Assembly (NCBI GenBank): GCA_947492995.1
Contig: CANLOU010000004.1
Location: forward strand, 1 to 64,000
Direction: 5' to 3'
From: an uncultured Litoreibacter sp.
Lineage (GTDB): Bacteria; Pseudomonadota; Alphaproteobacteria; Rhodobacterales; Rhodobacteraceae
Length of the DNA stretch: 64,000 nucleotides
Within the stretch, counting starts at the first letter, position 1. Every line of letters starts with the position of its first letter. This document shows positions 36,105-40,858 of the stretch, piece after piece. The translations under genes were made by a program, and so were the position numbers. The notes under the pieces were generated by a model. It worked only from the letters and a program-made list of their open reading frames with translations. It was not told the DNA's origin and did no database searches.

Positions 36105-36743
36105 TTAGCCGGGGTCTTTGGCAAGCCCCGTGCCGATCATGGCGTCGCGTGTGACCAATTCGGCCAGCTGCTGCTGGCTCCAGCCCTCGGTGCCCTTGGG
36201 CCGCGCCGGCAGTACGATGTAGCGCATGTCGGCGGTGCTGTCATGCACGCGGCAGGTGGTGGTTTCCGGAAGCTCCACCCCGAATTCGGCCAGCACCTTG
36301 CGCGGCTCCCTGACCGTGCGGGACCGGTATTCGCGCGTTTTGTACCAATCGGGCGGCAGCCCCAGCAGGTTGCGCGGGTAGCAGCTGCACAGGGTGCAGA
36401 CGATGACGTTGTGGATGTCTTCGGTGTTCTCGACGGCCACCAGATTCATCGGGCCAATGTCGAAGCCCATCTCCCTCGTGGCTTTGGAGCCGTCGGCCAG
36501 CAAGGCCGCCTTGAAGTCGGGCTCGTCCCAAGCGCGGGCCACTACCTTTGCCCCGTTGGTGGGGGAGCGGGCATCCATCGCCTCGATCTGCGCATTGACC
36601 TCGGCGGCGGTGAACTCGCCTTTCTCGATCATAATCTCGCGGATCGCGATTTCCATGGTTTGCCAGTAGCTGAGCGGCGCGTCATTGTCCTCGCGGTAGG
36701 GATGGCCCGACGGCGACAGGTGGTCGTGATGGTCATGCGGCAT
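36105..36743 (-). CDS. Cobalt-type nitrile hydratase alpha / thiocyanate hydrolase gamma-like catalytic subunit
   Basis: This 212-residue protein has a His-rich start (MPHDHHDHLSPSGH). The metal site is VCTLCSC (Cys116, Cys119, Cys121), the cobalt form of the claw-setting motif. It continues CYPRNLLGLPPDWYK and ends with AFGVELPE-like, DMRYIVLPARPKGTEGWS and LVTRDAMIG blocks. Arg124, directly after CYP, is usually Trp in nitrile hydratases and, as I recall, Arg (gamma-Arg136) in Thiobacillus thiocyanate hydrolase. It overlaps the upstream subunit gene by 11 bp. Nitrile hydration remains the alternative. Confidence 0.85.
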   Translation of the reverse strand: MPHDHHDHLSPSGHPYREDNDAPLSYWQTMEIAIREIMIEKGEFTAAEVNAQIEAMDARSPTNGAKVVARAWDEPDFKAALLADGSKATREMGFDIGPMNLVAVENTEDIHNVIVCTLCSCYPRNLLGLPPDWYKTREYRSRTVREPRKVLAEFGVELPETTTCRVHDSTADMRYIVLPARPKGTEGWSQQQLAELVTRDAMIGTGLAKDPG

Positions 36744-37011
36744 CGGTGTCAATCCAGTGCTCGTAGATTTCAGCGTCAAGCGTGTCTTCGCCCGTCTCGG
36801 CCGCGTCGCCCCACAGCTCGGCCATGGAAAAGCGCACGCGGTACAGCTGCTTTTCGGGGGCGGGCAGGCAATAGGCGCGTTGCTCGGGGTTTTCGTATGG
36901 CCCTAGGGCGCGCTCGATCACGCCGGTTTTGCCGCGCAGGTATTTGGGGGTCCGGATATGGCCCGGGGGCGACAGGTCGCGAATGCGGACGGCTTGACCG
37001 GGCTCAAGCAT
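36733..37011 (-). CDS. Nitrile hydratase beta C-terminal half / thiocyanate hydrolase alpha-like subunit
   Basis: This 92-residue SH3-like protein corresponds to the C-terminal barrel of NHase beta: FEPGQAVRIRD-type start, then PPGHIRTPKYLRGKTGVIERALG and QLYRVRFSMAELWG. In ordinary NHases this is fused to the N-terminal half; here it is separate. The start at 37011 overlaps the N-half gene by 8 bp, and the stop overlaps the alpha gene by 11 bp, so the three subunits should be made in step. The frame allows an upstream ATG at 37026. Confidence 0.85.
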   Translation of the reverse strand: MLEPGQAVRIRDLSPPGHIRTPKYLRGKTGVIERALGPYENPEQRAYCLPAPEKQLYRVRFSMAELWGDAAETGEDTLDAEIYEHWIDTDAA

Positions 37012-37342
37012 CTTGCGCGGCCCCATAGGTGTCGCCGCGCGCCTTGACCTCCGCCATCTTCGCGCCCAGCTCCTCAAGCGTGTAGACGCCCGCCTCGACG
37101 AAATTCTGGTTCACCGAGGCGACCCAGCGCTCGTAATAGGTCATGTCCTCAAACGCCTGTTCGCCCATATCCTCAAGGCAGCGGCGCAGCCCGTCGACGG
37201 TGAAATGGCCGCGGGCCGATCCAAGGATCATCAACGCATCGACGCGTTTCTCCCACAGGGCGAAGTCATGTTGGTCATTTGGCACGGGGCCTGCGGCGTC
37301 GCCGCCCATGTCGTGCCATCTATGGTCAGGTGATTTGCTCAT
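37004..37342 (-). CDS. Nitrile hydratase beta N-terminal half / thiocyanate hydrolase beta-like subunit
   Basis: This 112-residue protein matches the NHase beta N-terminal half: HDMGGDAAGPVPNDQHDFALWEKRVDALM, then FTVDGLRRCLEDM and YYERWVASVNQNFVEAGVYTLEELGAK. Its ATG lies 10 bp after the stop of the DUF442 gene, placing it in the same transcription unit as the sulfide genes. An NHase activator (P14K-like) is the alternative, but the MGG-AGPVP opening favours a true beta half. Confidence 0.83.
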   Translation of the reverse strand: MSKSPDHRWHDMGGDAAGPVPNDQHDFALWEKRVDALMILGSARGHFTVDGLRRCLEDMGEQAFEDMTYYERWVASVNQNFVEAGVYTLEELGAKMAEVKARGDTYGAAQDA

Positions 37343-37352
37343 GACAGGTAGG

Positions 37353-37775
37353 CTAGGGCGAGCCCATGCTCTGCGCAAGACTGTCGAGCTGCTGGCGCAT
37401 CTGCTCCATCGGGTAGCCAGCGGCCGCCAAGGCGGTCAGGATGTCGTCGGTCGGCATCTGGCCCGCCTGCGACAACGCCCAAAGCATCGCCGAGCGCGTC
37501 CCGGACGCGCAATAGGCCAGCACCTTGCCCTCAACCCTTTGCGCCAGCACCATCTGCATGTCCAGTTGCATGGCGGCCATCGGGTTGTCTGACCACCCAA
37601 GCCCGGCCTTTTCGACCGCATGCCTGATAATGTCGGGCTGCTGGTCGGGGGCACTTTCAAAGGCGGGACGGTTGCAGATCACATGGGTGAAGCCCTGCCC
37701 GGCAATGGCGGGGATGTCGGCGCTGTCAATTTGGGGCGCGACTGCGAAACTGGCGGAGAGCGTGCGAATGTCCAT
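37353..37775 (-). CDS. DUF442 / TIGR01244-type sulfurtransferase-phosphatase-like protein
   Basis: This 140-residue protein has the DUF442 pattern: SFAVAPQIDSADIPAIAGQGFTHVICNRP and the catalytic-loop motif AYCASGTRSAMLW, in which Cys is the likely nucleophile. The domain occurs as the N-terminus of some Blh proteins and as a separate gene in BigR-type operons, where it is linked to sulfide/persulfide handling. It lies 4 bp after the YedE-like gene and 10 bp before the hydratase genes. Confidence 0.87.
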   Translation of the reverse strand: MDIRTLSASFAVAPQIDSADIPAIAGQGFTHVICNRPAFESAPDQQPDIIRHAVEKAGLGWSDNPMAAMQLDMQMVLAQRVEGKVLAYCASGTRSAMLWALSQAGQMPTDDILTALAAAGYPMEQMRQQLDSLAQSMGSP

Positions 37776-37779
37776 GCGC

Positions 37780-38205
37780 TCACTTAGCCTGCATAAAGGC
37801 CGCTGTCACCCTTGGCTGGGCGATCATCGCGGCGCACATGGCGACAAAAAACACCAGCCCCTGCCATCCCCCAAACCCGAGGGACGCCATTGCCGGGCCG
37901 GGGCAAAGGCCCGACAGCCCCCAGCCAATGCCAAACAGGCCTGACCCTATTGCCAGCCTCGGGGTGATTTCGGCCTCTGCCCTGGCGGGCAGCGCGCCTC
38001 CAAGCACCGCCATGCGCCGCCTTGCCGCAACGCGCCACGCCACGGCCATGGGCAGGATCGCCCCGCCCAGAACGAATGCCAGCGTCGGGTCCCACGCCCC
38101 AAACAGGTCCAGCCAGCCCTGAACCTTGGTCGTGTCGGTCATGCCCGACAGGACCAGCCCAAGGCCAAACAGCGCGCCCGCGGCCAGCGCCGCAACGCCG
38201 CGCAT
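37780..38205 (-). CDS. YeeE/YedE half-transporter, DUF6691 type
   Basis: This 141-residue membrane protein has four hydrophobic helices. The conserved LSGMTDTTKVQGWLDLFGAWDP and the Cys-containing GLSGLCPGPAM motif are present, as in sulfur (thiosulfate/sulfide) permeases of the TsuA/YeeE family. Its ATG shares a base with the upstream half's stop (TGATG). The two halves probably form one transporter. Confidence 0.88.
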   Translation of the reverse strand: MRGVAALAAGALFGLGLVLSGMTDTTKVQGWLDLFGAWDPTLAFVLGGAILPMAVAWRVAARRRMAVLGGALPARAEAEITPRLAIGSGLFGIGWGLSGLCPGPAMASLGFGGWQGLVFFVAMCAAMIAQPRVTAAFMQAK

Positions 38206-38633
38206 CAGACCAGCCCCAATACGTGGCGAAAGATCACGACCGTGATCGCGCCCGCCGCCAGATACAGCAGCGTCGCCACAATCCCGCGCACCGACAGCCG
38301 TGACATGCCGCAAACGCCGTGACCCGAAGTGCAGCCATTGGCCAGCCGCGTGCCGAACCCCACACAAAGACCAGCCGCAATCAGCACCGCGATGTTGGAG
38401 GTCAGGTTGGTCTGCGCCGCGCCGCGCAACAAGTGCCAAACCAGCGGGGCGCCGACTAACCCTGACACAAACAAAACCGCCTCGCTCCGCGCGGCGCCTT
38501 TGCGCGATCCGTCGAGGATCCCCCCCAGCAGCCCCGACGCGCCCATGATCCGCCCGTTCAGCAGCAAAAAGGCCGCAGCCGCAGTGCCAATCATCAGCCC
38601 ACCCACAAGGCCCCATAGCCAGTCCAAAGGCAT
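38205..38633 (-). CDS. YeeE/YedE half-transporter, N-terminal partner
   Basis: This 142-residue membrane protein has helices at 8-26, 55-75, 80-98 and 115-140. It carries the sulfur-transport signature FGTRLANGCTSGHGVCGMSRLS, with two Cys likely to guide thiosulfate or sulfide. The ATG at 38633 has GGAG six bases before; an upstream TTG is rejected. It is coupled to the second half and lies 60 bp after the persulfide dioxygenase. Confidence 0.88.
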   Translation of the reverse strand: MPLDWLWGLVGGLMIGTAAAAFLLLNGRIMGASGLLGGILDGSRKGAARSEAVLFVSGLVGAPLVWHLLRGAAQTNLTSNIAVLIAAGLCVGFGTRLANGCTSGHGVCGMSRLSVRGIVATLLYLAAGAITVVIFRHVLGLV

Positions 38634-38655
38634 CACAGTCTCCAAAGTGTCTTAT

Positions 38656-38678
38656 GTTTCATCTTGGCAAAAATACCT
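38656..38678 (-). repeat. 23-bp dispersed motif, exact copy 2 (inverse)
   Basis: On the minus strand it reads AGGTATTTTTGCCAAG and on, identical over 23 bases to 7258-7280. It starts 15 bp after the persulfide dioxygenase stop and before the YeeE start. Confidence 0.85.
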
Positions 38679-38693
38679 GCCCCGCAGGGCCGC

Positions 38694-39563
38694 CTACAAG
38701 CCGTCGACCGGCACTTTCAGGTAGACCTTGCCGTTGTCATCGGGCTCCGGCATGTTGCCGGCCCGCATGTTGACCTGCAGGGAGGGGATAATCAGCTTGG
38801 GCATGCCCAATGTCGCGTCGCGGCCCTCGCGCAGCGCCACAAAATCTGCGCGGCTGACGCCGCCGCCGACATGCACGTTGCTGGCCTTTTCGGCCGCCAC
38901 TGAGGTTTCCCACGCAAATTCGTCGCGCCCCGGCGCTTTGTAGTCATGGCACACAAAAATGCGGGTCTCGTCGGGCAGCGACAGAATTTTCTGAATGGAA
39001 TCGTACAGATCGCCCGCCGACCCGCCGGGAAAGTCGCAGCGCGCCGTGCCGAAATCGGGCATAAACAGCGTGTCGCCGACAAAAGCGGCGTCCCCGATCA
39101 CATATGTCATGCAGGCGGGCGTGTGGCCCGGCGTGTGCAGCACGTCGCCGCGCAACTGGCCGATATGGAAGCTGTCGCCGTCTTGGAACAGCTGGTCAAA
39201 CTGGGAGCCGTCGCGCTGAAACGCCGTGCCCTCGTTGAAGACTTTGCCAAATTCTTCCTGCACCGTGGTGATCGCGGACCCGATCCCGATCTTGCCCCCC
39301 AAGGCGTCTTGCAGGTAGGGGGCCGCCGACAGGTGGTCGGCATGGACATGGGTTTCAATCAGCCACTCGGCTGACCAGCCCTTGTCTTTAACAAAGCCGA
39401 TGATGGCGTCGGCCGACGCCGTGTCGGTGCGCCCGGAGGCGTAGTCAAAGTCCAAAACGCTGTCGATGATCGCGCAGGCCGACCCGTGCGGGTCGCGCAC
39501 CACATAGGATGCGGTGTTGGTGGCTTCATCGAAAAAGGCGTGAACCTCGGGCTGCATGTCCAT
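38694..39563 (-). CDS. blh: Persulfide dioxygenase / Blh-type metallo-beta-lactamase fold protein
   Basis: This 289-residue MBL-fold protein has the metal motif THVHADHLSA (His72, His74, Asp76, His77). It also has HTPGHTP (~143-149), the GDTLFMPDFGTARCDFPGG segment and CHDY (His206). This is the ETHE1/Blh type that uses one iron to oxidise glutathione persulfide to sulfite. GGAGGA precedes the ATG. Operons with YeeE/YedE and DUF442 are controlled by BigR in relatives, but no ArsR-type regulator is seen here. A hairpin pair lies just upstream of the ribosome site. Confidence 0.92.
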   Translation of the reverse strand: MDMQPEVHAFFDEATNTASYVVRDPHGSACAIIDSVLDFDYASGRTDTASADAIIGFVKDKGWSAEWLIETHVHADHLSAAPYLQDALGGKIGIGSAITTVQEEFGKVFNEGTAFQRDGSQFDQLFQDGDSFHIGQLRGDVLHTPGHTPACMTYVIGDAAFVGDTLFMPDFGTARCDFPGGSAGDLYDSIQKILSLPDETRIFVCHDYKAPGRDEFAWETSVAAEKASNVHVGGGVSRADFVALREGRDATLGMPKLIIPSLQVNMRAGNMPEPDDNGKVYLKVPVDGL

Positions 39564-39622: not shown

Positions 39623-40858
39623 CTAGATTTTTTCCTGCGTATATCGCCGCAGTTCGGCCCGGGCGACCTGCCTGCGATGCACGGCATCGGGCCCGTCGGC
39701 CAGCCGCAAGGTGCGCAGATGCGCCCATTGGCGGGCGAGGGGGGTGTCCTGGCTGATACCTTGCGCGCCAAACATTTGCACGGCCTGGTCGGTGATCTCT
39801 AATGCGATGCGCGGTGCCTCCACCTTGATTTGCGAAATCCACGGGGCGGCGGCACGGGCGTCGCCTTGGTCCATCATCCACGCGGCTTTCAGGCAGAGCA
39901 GCCGCGCCTGCTCGATCTGCATCCTTGCGTTGGCGATATAGTCGAAATTGCCGCCCAGCTGCGCCAGCGGCTTGCCGAACGCCTCGCGCGCCAATGCGCG
40001 TTTGCACATCAATTCCAGCGCCCGTTCGGCCATGCCGATGGCGCGCATGCAGTGATGGATGCGGCCCGGCCCAAGCCGGCCCTGGGCGATCTCGAAGCCG
40101 CGGCCTTCGCCCAGCAGCATCGCAGAGGCCGGCACCCGCACATCGGTGAAACGGATATGCATATGCCCATGCGGGGCCTCGTCGTCGCCGTAGACCTGCA
40201 TGGCGCGCAGCTTTTCGATGCCGGGCGTGCCGGACGGCACCACGATCATTGAATGTTGCTGATGCCTCGGACCCTCGGTCGCTGTGCGCACCATCACAAT
40301 ATAGACCGCGCAGCGCGGGTCACCCGCGCCGGTGGCCCACCATTTTTCGCCGTTCAGGACATAGTCATCCCCGTCCCGCACGCAGCTGAGCGAGATATTC
40401 GTGGCGTCAGAGGACGCCACGTCCGGCTCCGTCATCAAATAGGCCGACCTGATCCGGCCGTCCAGCAATGGCTCCAGCCATTCGGCCTTCATGGCGTCCG
40501 AGCCGTATTTCTCGAACACCTCCATATTGCCGGTATCGGGCGCGTTGCAGTTGAAGGTTTCAGGGCCCAAATGCGCCTTGCCCATTTCCTCGGCCAGATA
40601 GGCGTATTCAACCGTGCTGAGCCGGTGCCCGGTTTCCGCCGACCAAAGGTTCCACAGCCCCGCCGCCTTGGCCTTGGATTTCAGCCCCTCCAAGATGGCC
40701 GTTTGGCGAGCCGTCAGTTCCCACCGGTCGCCCACCTCGACATCGGCAAAATATTCGGCCTCCAGCGGTGCGACCTCGTCTGTGACCATGGCCATGACGG
40801 CCTCGCGAATGGGGATCAGGCGGTCGGAGGGGCCGAGGGCCATGGGACCAGAGTTCAT
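39623..40858 (-). CDS. Acyl-CoA dehydrogenase, ACAD10/11-like
   Basis: This 411-residue flavoprotein has the ACAD pattern: MTEPDVASSDATNI, GEKWWATGAGDPRCAVYIVM, the RALAREAFGKPLAQLG helix and DQAVQMFGAQGISQDTPLARQ. The catalytic base region is DGPDAVHRRQVARAEL. This subgroup matches the dehydrogenase half of human ACAD10/11 and the bacterial levulinate enzymes, which act with a 4-hydroxyacyl kinase. A divergent APH-type kinase gene 88 bp away supports that link. The ATG at 40858 follows AAAGGACTG. Confidence 0.88.
   Translation of the reverse strand: MNSGPMALGPSDRLIPIREAVMAMVTDEVAPLEAEYFADVEVGDRWELTARQTAILEGLKSKAKAAGLWNLWSAETGHRLSTVEYAYLAEEMGKAHLGPETFNCNAPDTGNMEVFEKYGSDAMKAEWLEPLLDGRIRSAYLMTEPDVASSDATNISLSCVRDGDDYVLNGEKWWATGAGDPRCAVYIVMVRTATEGPRHQQHSMIVVPSGTPGIEKLRAMQVYGDDEAPHGHMHIRFTDVRVPASAMLLGEGRGFEIAQGRLGPGRIHHCMRAIGMAERALELMCKRALAREAFGKPLAQLGGNFDYIANARMQIEQARLLCLKAAWMMDQGDARAAAPWISQIKVEAPRIALEITDQAVQMFGAQGISQDTPLARQWAHLRTLRLADGPDAVHRRQVARAELRRYTQEKI

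What the first reader, a model, noticed from the sequence alone, without database searches (positions are those of the whole stretch)
36105..39563. Three-gene cobalt hydratase, laid out like thiocyanate hydrolase, linked to a persulfide-detoxification operon
Seen: the beta polypeptide of the nitrile hydratase family is split into separate N- and C-half genes overlapping each other and the VCTLCSC catalytic subunit (8 and 11 bp). This is the scnB-scnA-scnC layout of thiocyanate hydrolase. The residue after CYP is Arg124, whereas ordinary NHases have Trp there; from memory, thiocyanate hydrolase has Arg (gamma-Arg136). The trio starts 10 bp after a DUF442 gene in a run with two YeeE/YedE halves and an ETHE1/Blh-type dioxygenase. 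Inference: the enzyme makes carbonyl sulfide and ammonia from thiocyanate, and the sulfide genes handle the sulfur released. This would be a compact thiocyanate-to-sulfite module.
Basis: partly seen in the sequence, partly recalled or inferred. Interest (0 to 1): 0.8.

Follow-up and report, generated by a model that had tools for sequence, protein, structure and literature searches.

The report
Split cobalt hydratase beside sulfur genes
A marine bacterium carries a three-part cobalt enzyme that belongs to a little-studied branch lying on the thiocyanate-hydrolase side of the nitrile-hydratase family; next to it sits a sulfur-transfer gene whose relatives make thiocyanate from cyanide, but no activity has been tested.

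Summary
In detail: betaN (37004-37342), betaC (36733-37011) and alpha (36105-36743), all minus strand, overlap by 8 and 11 bp, alpha has Arg124 after CYP, and the trio starts 10 bp after a DUF442 gene. Alpha passes NCBI's nitrile-hydratase model (260 against 249.85) and fails the thiocyanate-hydrolase model (207 against 291.45). Yet a tree puts it, with 100/100 support, on the side of the thiocyanate hydrolase of known structure, apart from the classical and Streptomyces three-subunit nitrile hydratases sampled; it is not inside the thiocyanate-hydrolase clade. It is a third group, an old trio of Rhodobacteraceae (45 of 295 genomes sampled) with arginines shared with thiocyanate hydrolase. The sulfur linkage is local: DUF442 abuts the trio in 7 of 68 loci of this group, the dioxygenase is near in 2. 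DUF442 homologues occur in 264 of 295 family genomes and seldom lie beside the trio. A published DUF442 domain turns cyanide plus thiosulfate into thiocyanate, so DUF442 may feed the hydratase rather than only clear its sulfur. Substrate unproven; thiocyanate is my leading guess.

The parts
36105..36743 (-). alpha-type catalytic subunit, 212 aa, Co motif VCTLCSCYPR, Arg124
36733..37011 (-). C-terminal half of the NHase beta subunit (betaC), 92 aa
37004..37342 (-). N-terminal half of the NHase beta subunit (betaN), 112 aa, Arg53/Arg54/Arg72
37353..37775 (-). DUF442 (TIGR01244) sulfurtransferase, 140 aa, loop CASGTRS; 10 bp before betaN
37780..38205 (-). YeeE/YedE-type membrane half, DUF6691
38205..38633 (-). 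YeeE/YedE-type membrane half, Sulf_transp
38694..39563 (-). ETHE1/Blh-type persulfide dioxygenase, 289 aa; only full-length copy found in the genome
38676..38688 (-). terminator-like hairpin with T-run just after the dioxygenase stop; may separate it from the genes downstream
   Evidence: 7 such sites found in the region, 4.1 +- 2.3 in shuffles, so not clearly above chance

Best explanation
The trio encodes a three-subunit cobalt(III) hydratase (betaN + betaC + alpha). It belongs to a separate group on the thiocyanate-hydrolase side of the nitrile-hydratase family. The likely mechanism is that of the family: the oxidised cysteines of CTLCSC hold Co, betaN Arg53 and betaC Arg20 hold the oxidised cysteines, and a C-N triple bond is hydrated. 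The extra arginines (alpha Arg124, betaN Arg54 and Arg72) suggest a small anionic substrate, and thiocyanate is the most likely single one: SCN- to COS + NH3. In this lineage the trio is probably read together with DUF442, which may make thiocyanate from cyanide and thiosulfate or persulfide; the dioxygenase and YeeE genes are probably the cell's ordinary persulfide operon. Shown: sequences, order, spacing, tree, shared residues. Inferred: metal, oxidised cysteines, place of the arginines in the pocket, substrate, co-transcription and pathway.
For: Tree branch 100/100 with 2dd4 and apart from the NHases and Streptomyces AnhA-type subunits in the tree. Arg after CYP in 45 of 45 close relatives; of 35 other loci 13 have Arg (12 of them in the order betaN-betaC-alpha) and 22, all with alpha first, have W, F or H; 12 AnhD-linked Streptomyces loci have Leu (11) or Val (1). 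Arg in YYxRW of betaN: found in 68 of 72 group-A entries, Arg in all 68 (at least two entries are repeats); found in 38 of 63 other R-clade entries, Arg in all 38; found in 29 of 50 alpha-beta entries, Arg in 1; among SCNase-clade rows the pattern caught only two identical copies, both Arg, and 2dd4_B has Arg too. betaN Arg53 and betaC Arg20 are invariant in group A and equal in 2dd4 and the NHases compared. The DUF442 stop lies -4 to +21 bp from a betaN start codon in 7 of 7 loci, loop C[AT]SGTRS in 7 of 7. A DUF442 domain alone makes SCN- and sulfite from cyanide and thiosulfate (PMC5823870, passages).
Against: alpha fails TIGR03887 (206.9 against 291.45) and passes TIGR01323. It lacks the insert before the Co motif that P0011 and 2dd4_C have. 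At 17 columns that separate SCNase from NHase, group A matches SCNase at 5, NHase at 8, neither at 4. betaC has the NHase-like GH before its key Arg where 2dd4_A has FY. SCNases sit on a long stem of their own (0.70). DUF442 is beside the trio in 7 of 68 loci only; DUF442 homologues are found in 264 of 295 genomes. No COS hydrolase was identified: the genome has one Pro_CA gene, not examined further.
Confidence: 0.42

Rival explanations
1. A three-subunit nitrile hydratase for an organic nitrile, perhaps one with a carboxylate or other negative charge; the arginines bind that charge. The sulfur genes are neighbours by chance or share only a promoter.
For: Passes the curated NHase alpha model; same gene order as the nitrile-active AnhDEA (PMC7329996); DUF442, YeeE and dioxygenase hits absent upstream of 61 of 68 loci; NHase-like at 8 of 17 separating columns.
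Against: Tree separates it from AnhA-type and the alpha-beta NHases sampled with 100/100; the Trp or Leu of nitrile-active enzymes is Arg in 45 of 45. No nitrile-active member of this clade was met in the passages read here, which is weak evidence.
Confidence: 0.4
2. The sulfur genes are a common Rhodobacteraceae persulfide operon that happened to settle beside an old, unrelated trio; shared transcription has no functional meaning.
For: DUF442 homologues in 264 of 295 genomes; beside the trio in 4 of the 45 trio genomes of that sample. The trio sits in an old neighbourhood: genes I read as aconitase (47 of 68), DUF1223 (49), LpxL-like (43) and adenylosuccinate lyase (36) lie within 6.5 kb.
Against: DUF442 directly abuts betaN in two separate parts of the group tree, in four loci without dioxygenase or YeeE hits upstream.
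Confidence: 0.45
3. A full thiocyanate-to-sulfite module: COS is turned to sulfide and then to persulfide and sulfite by the adjacent genes.
For: Gene order in the window and in L188.
Against: Dioxygenase seen beside the trio in 2 of 68 loci (three, L050, L070 and L195, have too little upstream sequence to show it); no COS hydrolase or sulfide:quinone reductase among the seven genes of the run; a terminator-like hairpin follows the dioxygenase.
Confidence: 0.12

Closest known systems
Thiocyanate hydrolase of Thiobacillus thioparus (PDB 2dd4; TIGR03887)
   Same: beta split in two subunits, Co motif, Arg after CYP, Arg in YYxRW, same side of the family tree
   Different: fails its curated model, lacks its insert before the Co motif, outside its clade, no activity known
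Three-subunit nitrile hydratase AnhDEA of Streptomyces canus (PMC7329996)
   Same: gene order N-half, C-half, alpha; no separate activator gene found
   Different: other side of the tree; Leu or Val instead of Arg in the Streptomyces loci that begin like AnhD (the S. canus sequence itself was not seen)
Classical alpha-beta Co nitrile hydratases (1v29, 2dpp, 4ob1)
   Same: related alpha with the same metal motif and two key arginines of beta
   Different: beta undivided, Trp after CYP, separate clade
Blh / bigR-type persulfide enzyme (PMC5823870)
   Same: DUF442 sulfurtransferase and ETHE1-type dioxygenase
   Different: here two separate genes, with two YeeE halves and joined to the hydratase trio

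Membership tests
Thiocyanate hydrolase | curated model of the gamma subunit (TIGR03887) | tested here: not met
   206.9 against 291.45; control P0011 scores 359.2
Thiocyanate hydrolase | placement in the clade of 2dd4 | tested here: not met
   SCNase clade 100/95 excludes it; sister position of the two groups not rejected, p-AU 0.374
Thiocyanate hydrolase | beta split into N- and C-half subunits | tested here: met
   but the Roseomonas SCNase L124 has them fused
   but it is shared by a much wider clade
Thiocyanate hydrolase | separate activator gene | tested here: not met
   one NHase_beta_N gene in the genome, betaN itself; a diverged activator could escape this model
Thiocyanate hydrolase | hydrolysis of thiocyanate | not testable with these tools
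   needs an assay
Nitrile hydratase | curated alpha model (TIGR01323) | tested here: met
   260.3 against 249.85
Nitrile hydratase | placement among characterised NHases | tested here: not met
   branch 100/100; Fe-type and ToyJ sequences were not in the tree
Nitrile hydratase | single undivided beta subunit | tested here: not met
Nitrile hydratase | hydration of organic nitriles | not testable with these tools
   needs an assay
Three-subunit NHase (AnhDEA) | grouping with AnhA-type subunits | tested here: not met
DUF442 sulfurtransferase (TIGR01244) | curated model and CxxGxR loop | tested here: met
   105.6 against 85.85; CASGTRS

The most novel reading that the evidence does not exclude
A two-step cyanide-disposal operon: a free-standing DUF442 protein turns cyanide and sulfane sulfur into thiocyanate, and a branch of arginine-rich three-subunit cobalt hydratases, found in several phyla and named nitrile hydratase in the records seen, splits thiocyanate into carbonyl sulfide and ammonia. 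A good part of what is annotated as nitrile hydratase in marine Rhodobacteraceae would then be thiocyanate hydrolase and a source of COS.
Probability: 0.22. Interest if true: 0.75.

Novelty: new variant of a known kind. Interest (0 to 1): 0.5.

Why it matters
A clade with members in Pseudomonadota, Actinomycetota, Chloroflexota and a cyanobacterial plasmid carries the split layout and arginines of thiocyanate hydrolase; three plasmid records of it are annotated as nitrile hydratase. If these enzymes act on thiocyanate, thiocyanate and COS turnover in the sea may be undercounted. One purified trio and one arginine exchange would settle the substrate.

Tried and rejected
Layout as proof of thiocyanate hydrolase: rejected, AnhDEA has it too (PMC7329996). 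Arg as a simple mark of the split layout: first believed (note), then withdrawn, because AnhD-linked Streptomyces loci have Leu or Val and 20 Chloroflexota loci have R 3, T 1, G 2, A 2, S 1, W 11. A link of the wider clade to sulfurtransferases: L198 (Chloroflexota) has a thiol-dioxygenase homologue (no Pfam match at 1e-5) and a multi-domain rhodanese after the alpha gene, but none of 20 further Chloroflexota loci, several of them short, showed hits to either; I treat it as a single case. Conserved partners of other R-clade loci: of 61 nearest same-strand ORFs of 58 loci, 60 were scanned (the other); families were scattered (NicO 2, rhodanese 1); only 25 of 49 families were shown, so absence of amidase or nitrilase is not proven. 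Gene calls there were mechanical. One search was wasted on 40-residue fragments. Paper searches: I noticed no report of this Rhodobacteraceae group acting on thiocyanate, but for most hits only the listing was seen (for example PMC5770400 and PMC3230580, which mention nitrile hydratase in roseobacters, were not opened). PMC10098168 (passages and sections 8 and 18) built a thiocyanate-hydrolase tree with many Alphaproteobacteria from a loose search; its figures are not held, and it may include this group. Group A was cut at 62.5% identity; one of its 68 loci (L142) falls outside in the tree. No structure was predicted: the active site lies between subunits and single chains alone can be folded.
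Full report
The observation. On the minus strand the genes run dioxygenase (39563-38694), two YeeE-type halves (38633-38205, 38205-37780), DUF442 (37775-37353), betaN (37342-37004), betaC (37011-36733) and alpha (36743-36105). The overlaps of 8 and 11 bp, the 10-bp gap and Arg124 are right.

What the enzyme is by family models. The alpha subunit passes the curated nitrile-hydratase model (260.3, cut-off 249.85) and fails the thiocyanate-hydrolase gamma model (206.9, cut-off 291.45). A control, the scnC product of Roseomonas marmotae (P0011), scores 359.2 on the latter and its best PDB match is 2dd4_C. In a search of 398 genomes of the phylum, 58 had a match to the latter model and none passed its cut-off.

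What it is by descent. A maximum-likelihood tree of 84 alpha-type rows, with the residue after CYP masked, has one deep branch with 100/100 support. On one side are the alpha-beta nitrile hydratases sampled, the three PDB nitrile hydratases used, and the Streptomyces three-subunit type. On the other are 56 rows: the thiocyanate hydrolases (2dd4 with three rows, two of them identical, 100/95, on a long stem), the window's group, and other loci from several phyla. Fifty-five of these 56 have Arg or Lys after CYP; one (L076) has Trp. A tree with the window's group beside the thiocyanate hydrolases is not rejected (p-AU 0.374), nor is one that keeps all Arg/Lys rows apart from L076 (p-AU 0.168). 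The bootstrap had not fully settled. Rows were thinned from 206 sequences, and the named loci were chosen by similarity to a member of this clade, so the clade's share among all loci cannot be read from it.

The arginine. Arg follows CYP in 45 of 45 close relatives (63-100% identical) from 295 family genomes and in 78 of 80 named loci, the other two having Lys. Of 35 other loci, 13 have Arg and 22 have W, F or H. Twelve Streptomyces loci begin with MARINDVGG and match the published anhD forward primer of S. canus with 0-2 mismatches; they have Leu (11) or Val (1). Two of them, L235 and L242, match all four primers with at most 2 mismatches. S. canus AnhDEA hydrates acetamiprid (PMC7329996, parts 1-4 of 6 read). 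So the three-gene layout alone does not mark thiocyanate hydrolase, while the arginine goes with this clade. It is not fixed everywhere: Chloroflexota loci vary. A second arginine, in the YYxRW motif of betaN, follows the clade too. Where a simple pattern caught the motif, Arg stood in 68 of 68 group-A entries (72 looked at, at least two repeats), 38 of 38 other R-clade entries (63 looked at) and 1 of 29 alpha-beta entries (50 looked at); among SCNase rows it caught only two identical copies, and 2dd4_B has Arg as well. A third, betaN Arg54, is invariant in group A and present in 2dd4_B, but variable in the rest of the clade. At 17 alpha columns that separate thiocyanate hydrolases (3 rows) from nitrile hydratases (53 rows), group A sides with the former at 5, the latter at 8 and neither at 4. 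It is a group of its own. That these arginines line the pocket is inferred from sequence, not from a model.

Catalytic parts. betaN Arg53 and betaC Arg20 line up with residues shared by 2dd4 and the nitrile hydratases compared, and are invariant in group A; a review describes salt bridges of two beta arginines (R52, R157) to the oxidised cysteines (PMC7193024, passages), and their identity with these two is my inference. The genome has one alpha gene and one NHase_beta_N gene, so no separate activator was found, as reported for AnhDEA.

The neighbourhood. The two beta halves are in separate frames in 68 of 68 group-A loci. The trio sits in an old chromosomal setting: within 6.5 kb, genes that I read as aconitase lie in 47 of 68 loci, DUF1223 in 49, LpxL-like in 43, adenylosuccinate lyase in 36 (these names are mine from sequence, not from a model). 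DUF442 is directly upstream in 7 of 68 (window, L188, L032, L176, L059, L043, L151; L070 has too little upstream sequence), YeeE halves in 3, the dioxygenase in 2 (L050, L070 and L195 are too short to show the last). In all 7 the DUF442 stop is -4 to +21 bp from a betaN start and the loop is intact. On a quick trio tree the 7 need two changes, so one origin with loss or two origins. DUF442 homologues occur in 264 of 295 family genomes; beside the trio in 4 of the 45 trio genomes. In this genome the copy beside the trio is the only one found, and the dioxygenase is the only full-length one. Thus the sulfur genes look mainly like the cell's ordinary persulfide operon, and the firmer partner, where there is one, is DUF442.

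How it may work. An isolated DUF442 domain (Xylella Blh residues 1-141) moves sulfur from thiosulfate to cyanide, giving thiocyanate and sulfite (PMC5823870, passages); another DUF442 domain does so with a CRTGTR loop whose last Arg is needed (PMC8533005, passages). The same domains also pass sulfur to glutathione, which fits a plain persulfide role. The window's loop is CASGTRS. So DUF442 could supply the proposed substrate of the hydratase. A terminator-like hairpin after the dioxygenase may cut it off from the rest, though such sites are not clearly above chance here. No promoter-like site was found between DUF442 and betaN, for a consensus that may not fit this organism.

Verdict. Observation confirmed, interpretation partly supported. 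The trio is a new variant of a known kind. I hold thiocyanate as the most likely single substrate but below even odds.

Noticed in passing
L090:7039-7659 (minus), genome G171, same genus as the window: A second, divergent R-type hydratase with split beta (CYPRSILGQPPSWYI) in a genome that also has the window-type trio; nearest row L111. Two paralogues of this clade in one genome suggest different substrates.
   Followed up: partly
L198:4540-7965: In a Chloroflexota genome betaC and alpha are followed by a thiol-dioxygenase homologue (4qma, 2.3e-19) and a multi-domain rhodanese; no betaN was recognised upstream.
   Followed up: partly
L124:5095-8339: On a Roseomonas marmotae plasmid the two beta halves are fused in one gene next to an scnC gene that passes the SCNase model, with CbtB and CbtA genes after it and a TauE/SafE gene further on.
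   Followed up: no
L191, L175, L194: Rhodococcus and Nocardia loci with CYPRPVLGMSPDWYR; L191 joins the thiocyanate-hydrolase clade with 100/100, an actinobacterial relative perhaps worth an assay.
   Followed up: no
window 39623-40858: An acyl-CoA dehydrogenase gene (named from sequence) lies upstream on the same strand and is kept near the trio in L188, L032, L176 and L059 as well.
   Followed up: no
L076:7467-8099: A Rhodobacteraceae trio with split beta inside the R-clade that has Trp after CYP: a natural exchange useful as a comparison for the arginine's role.
   Followed up: no
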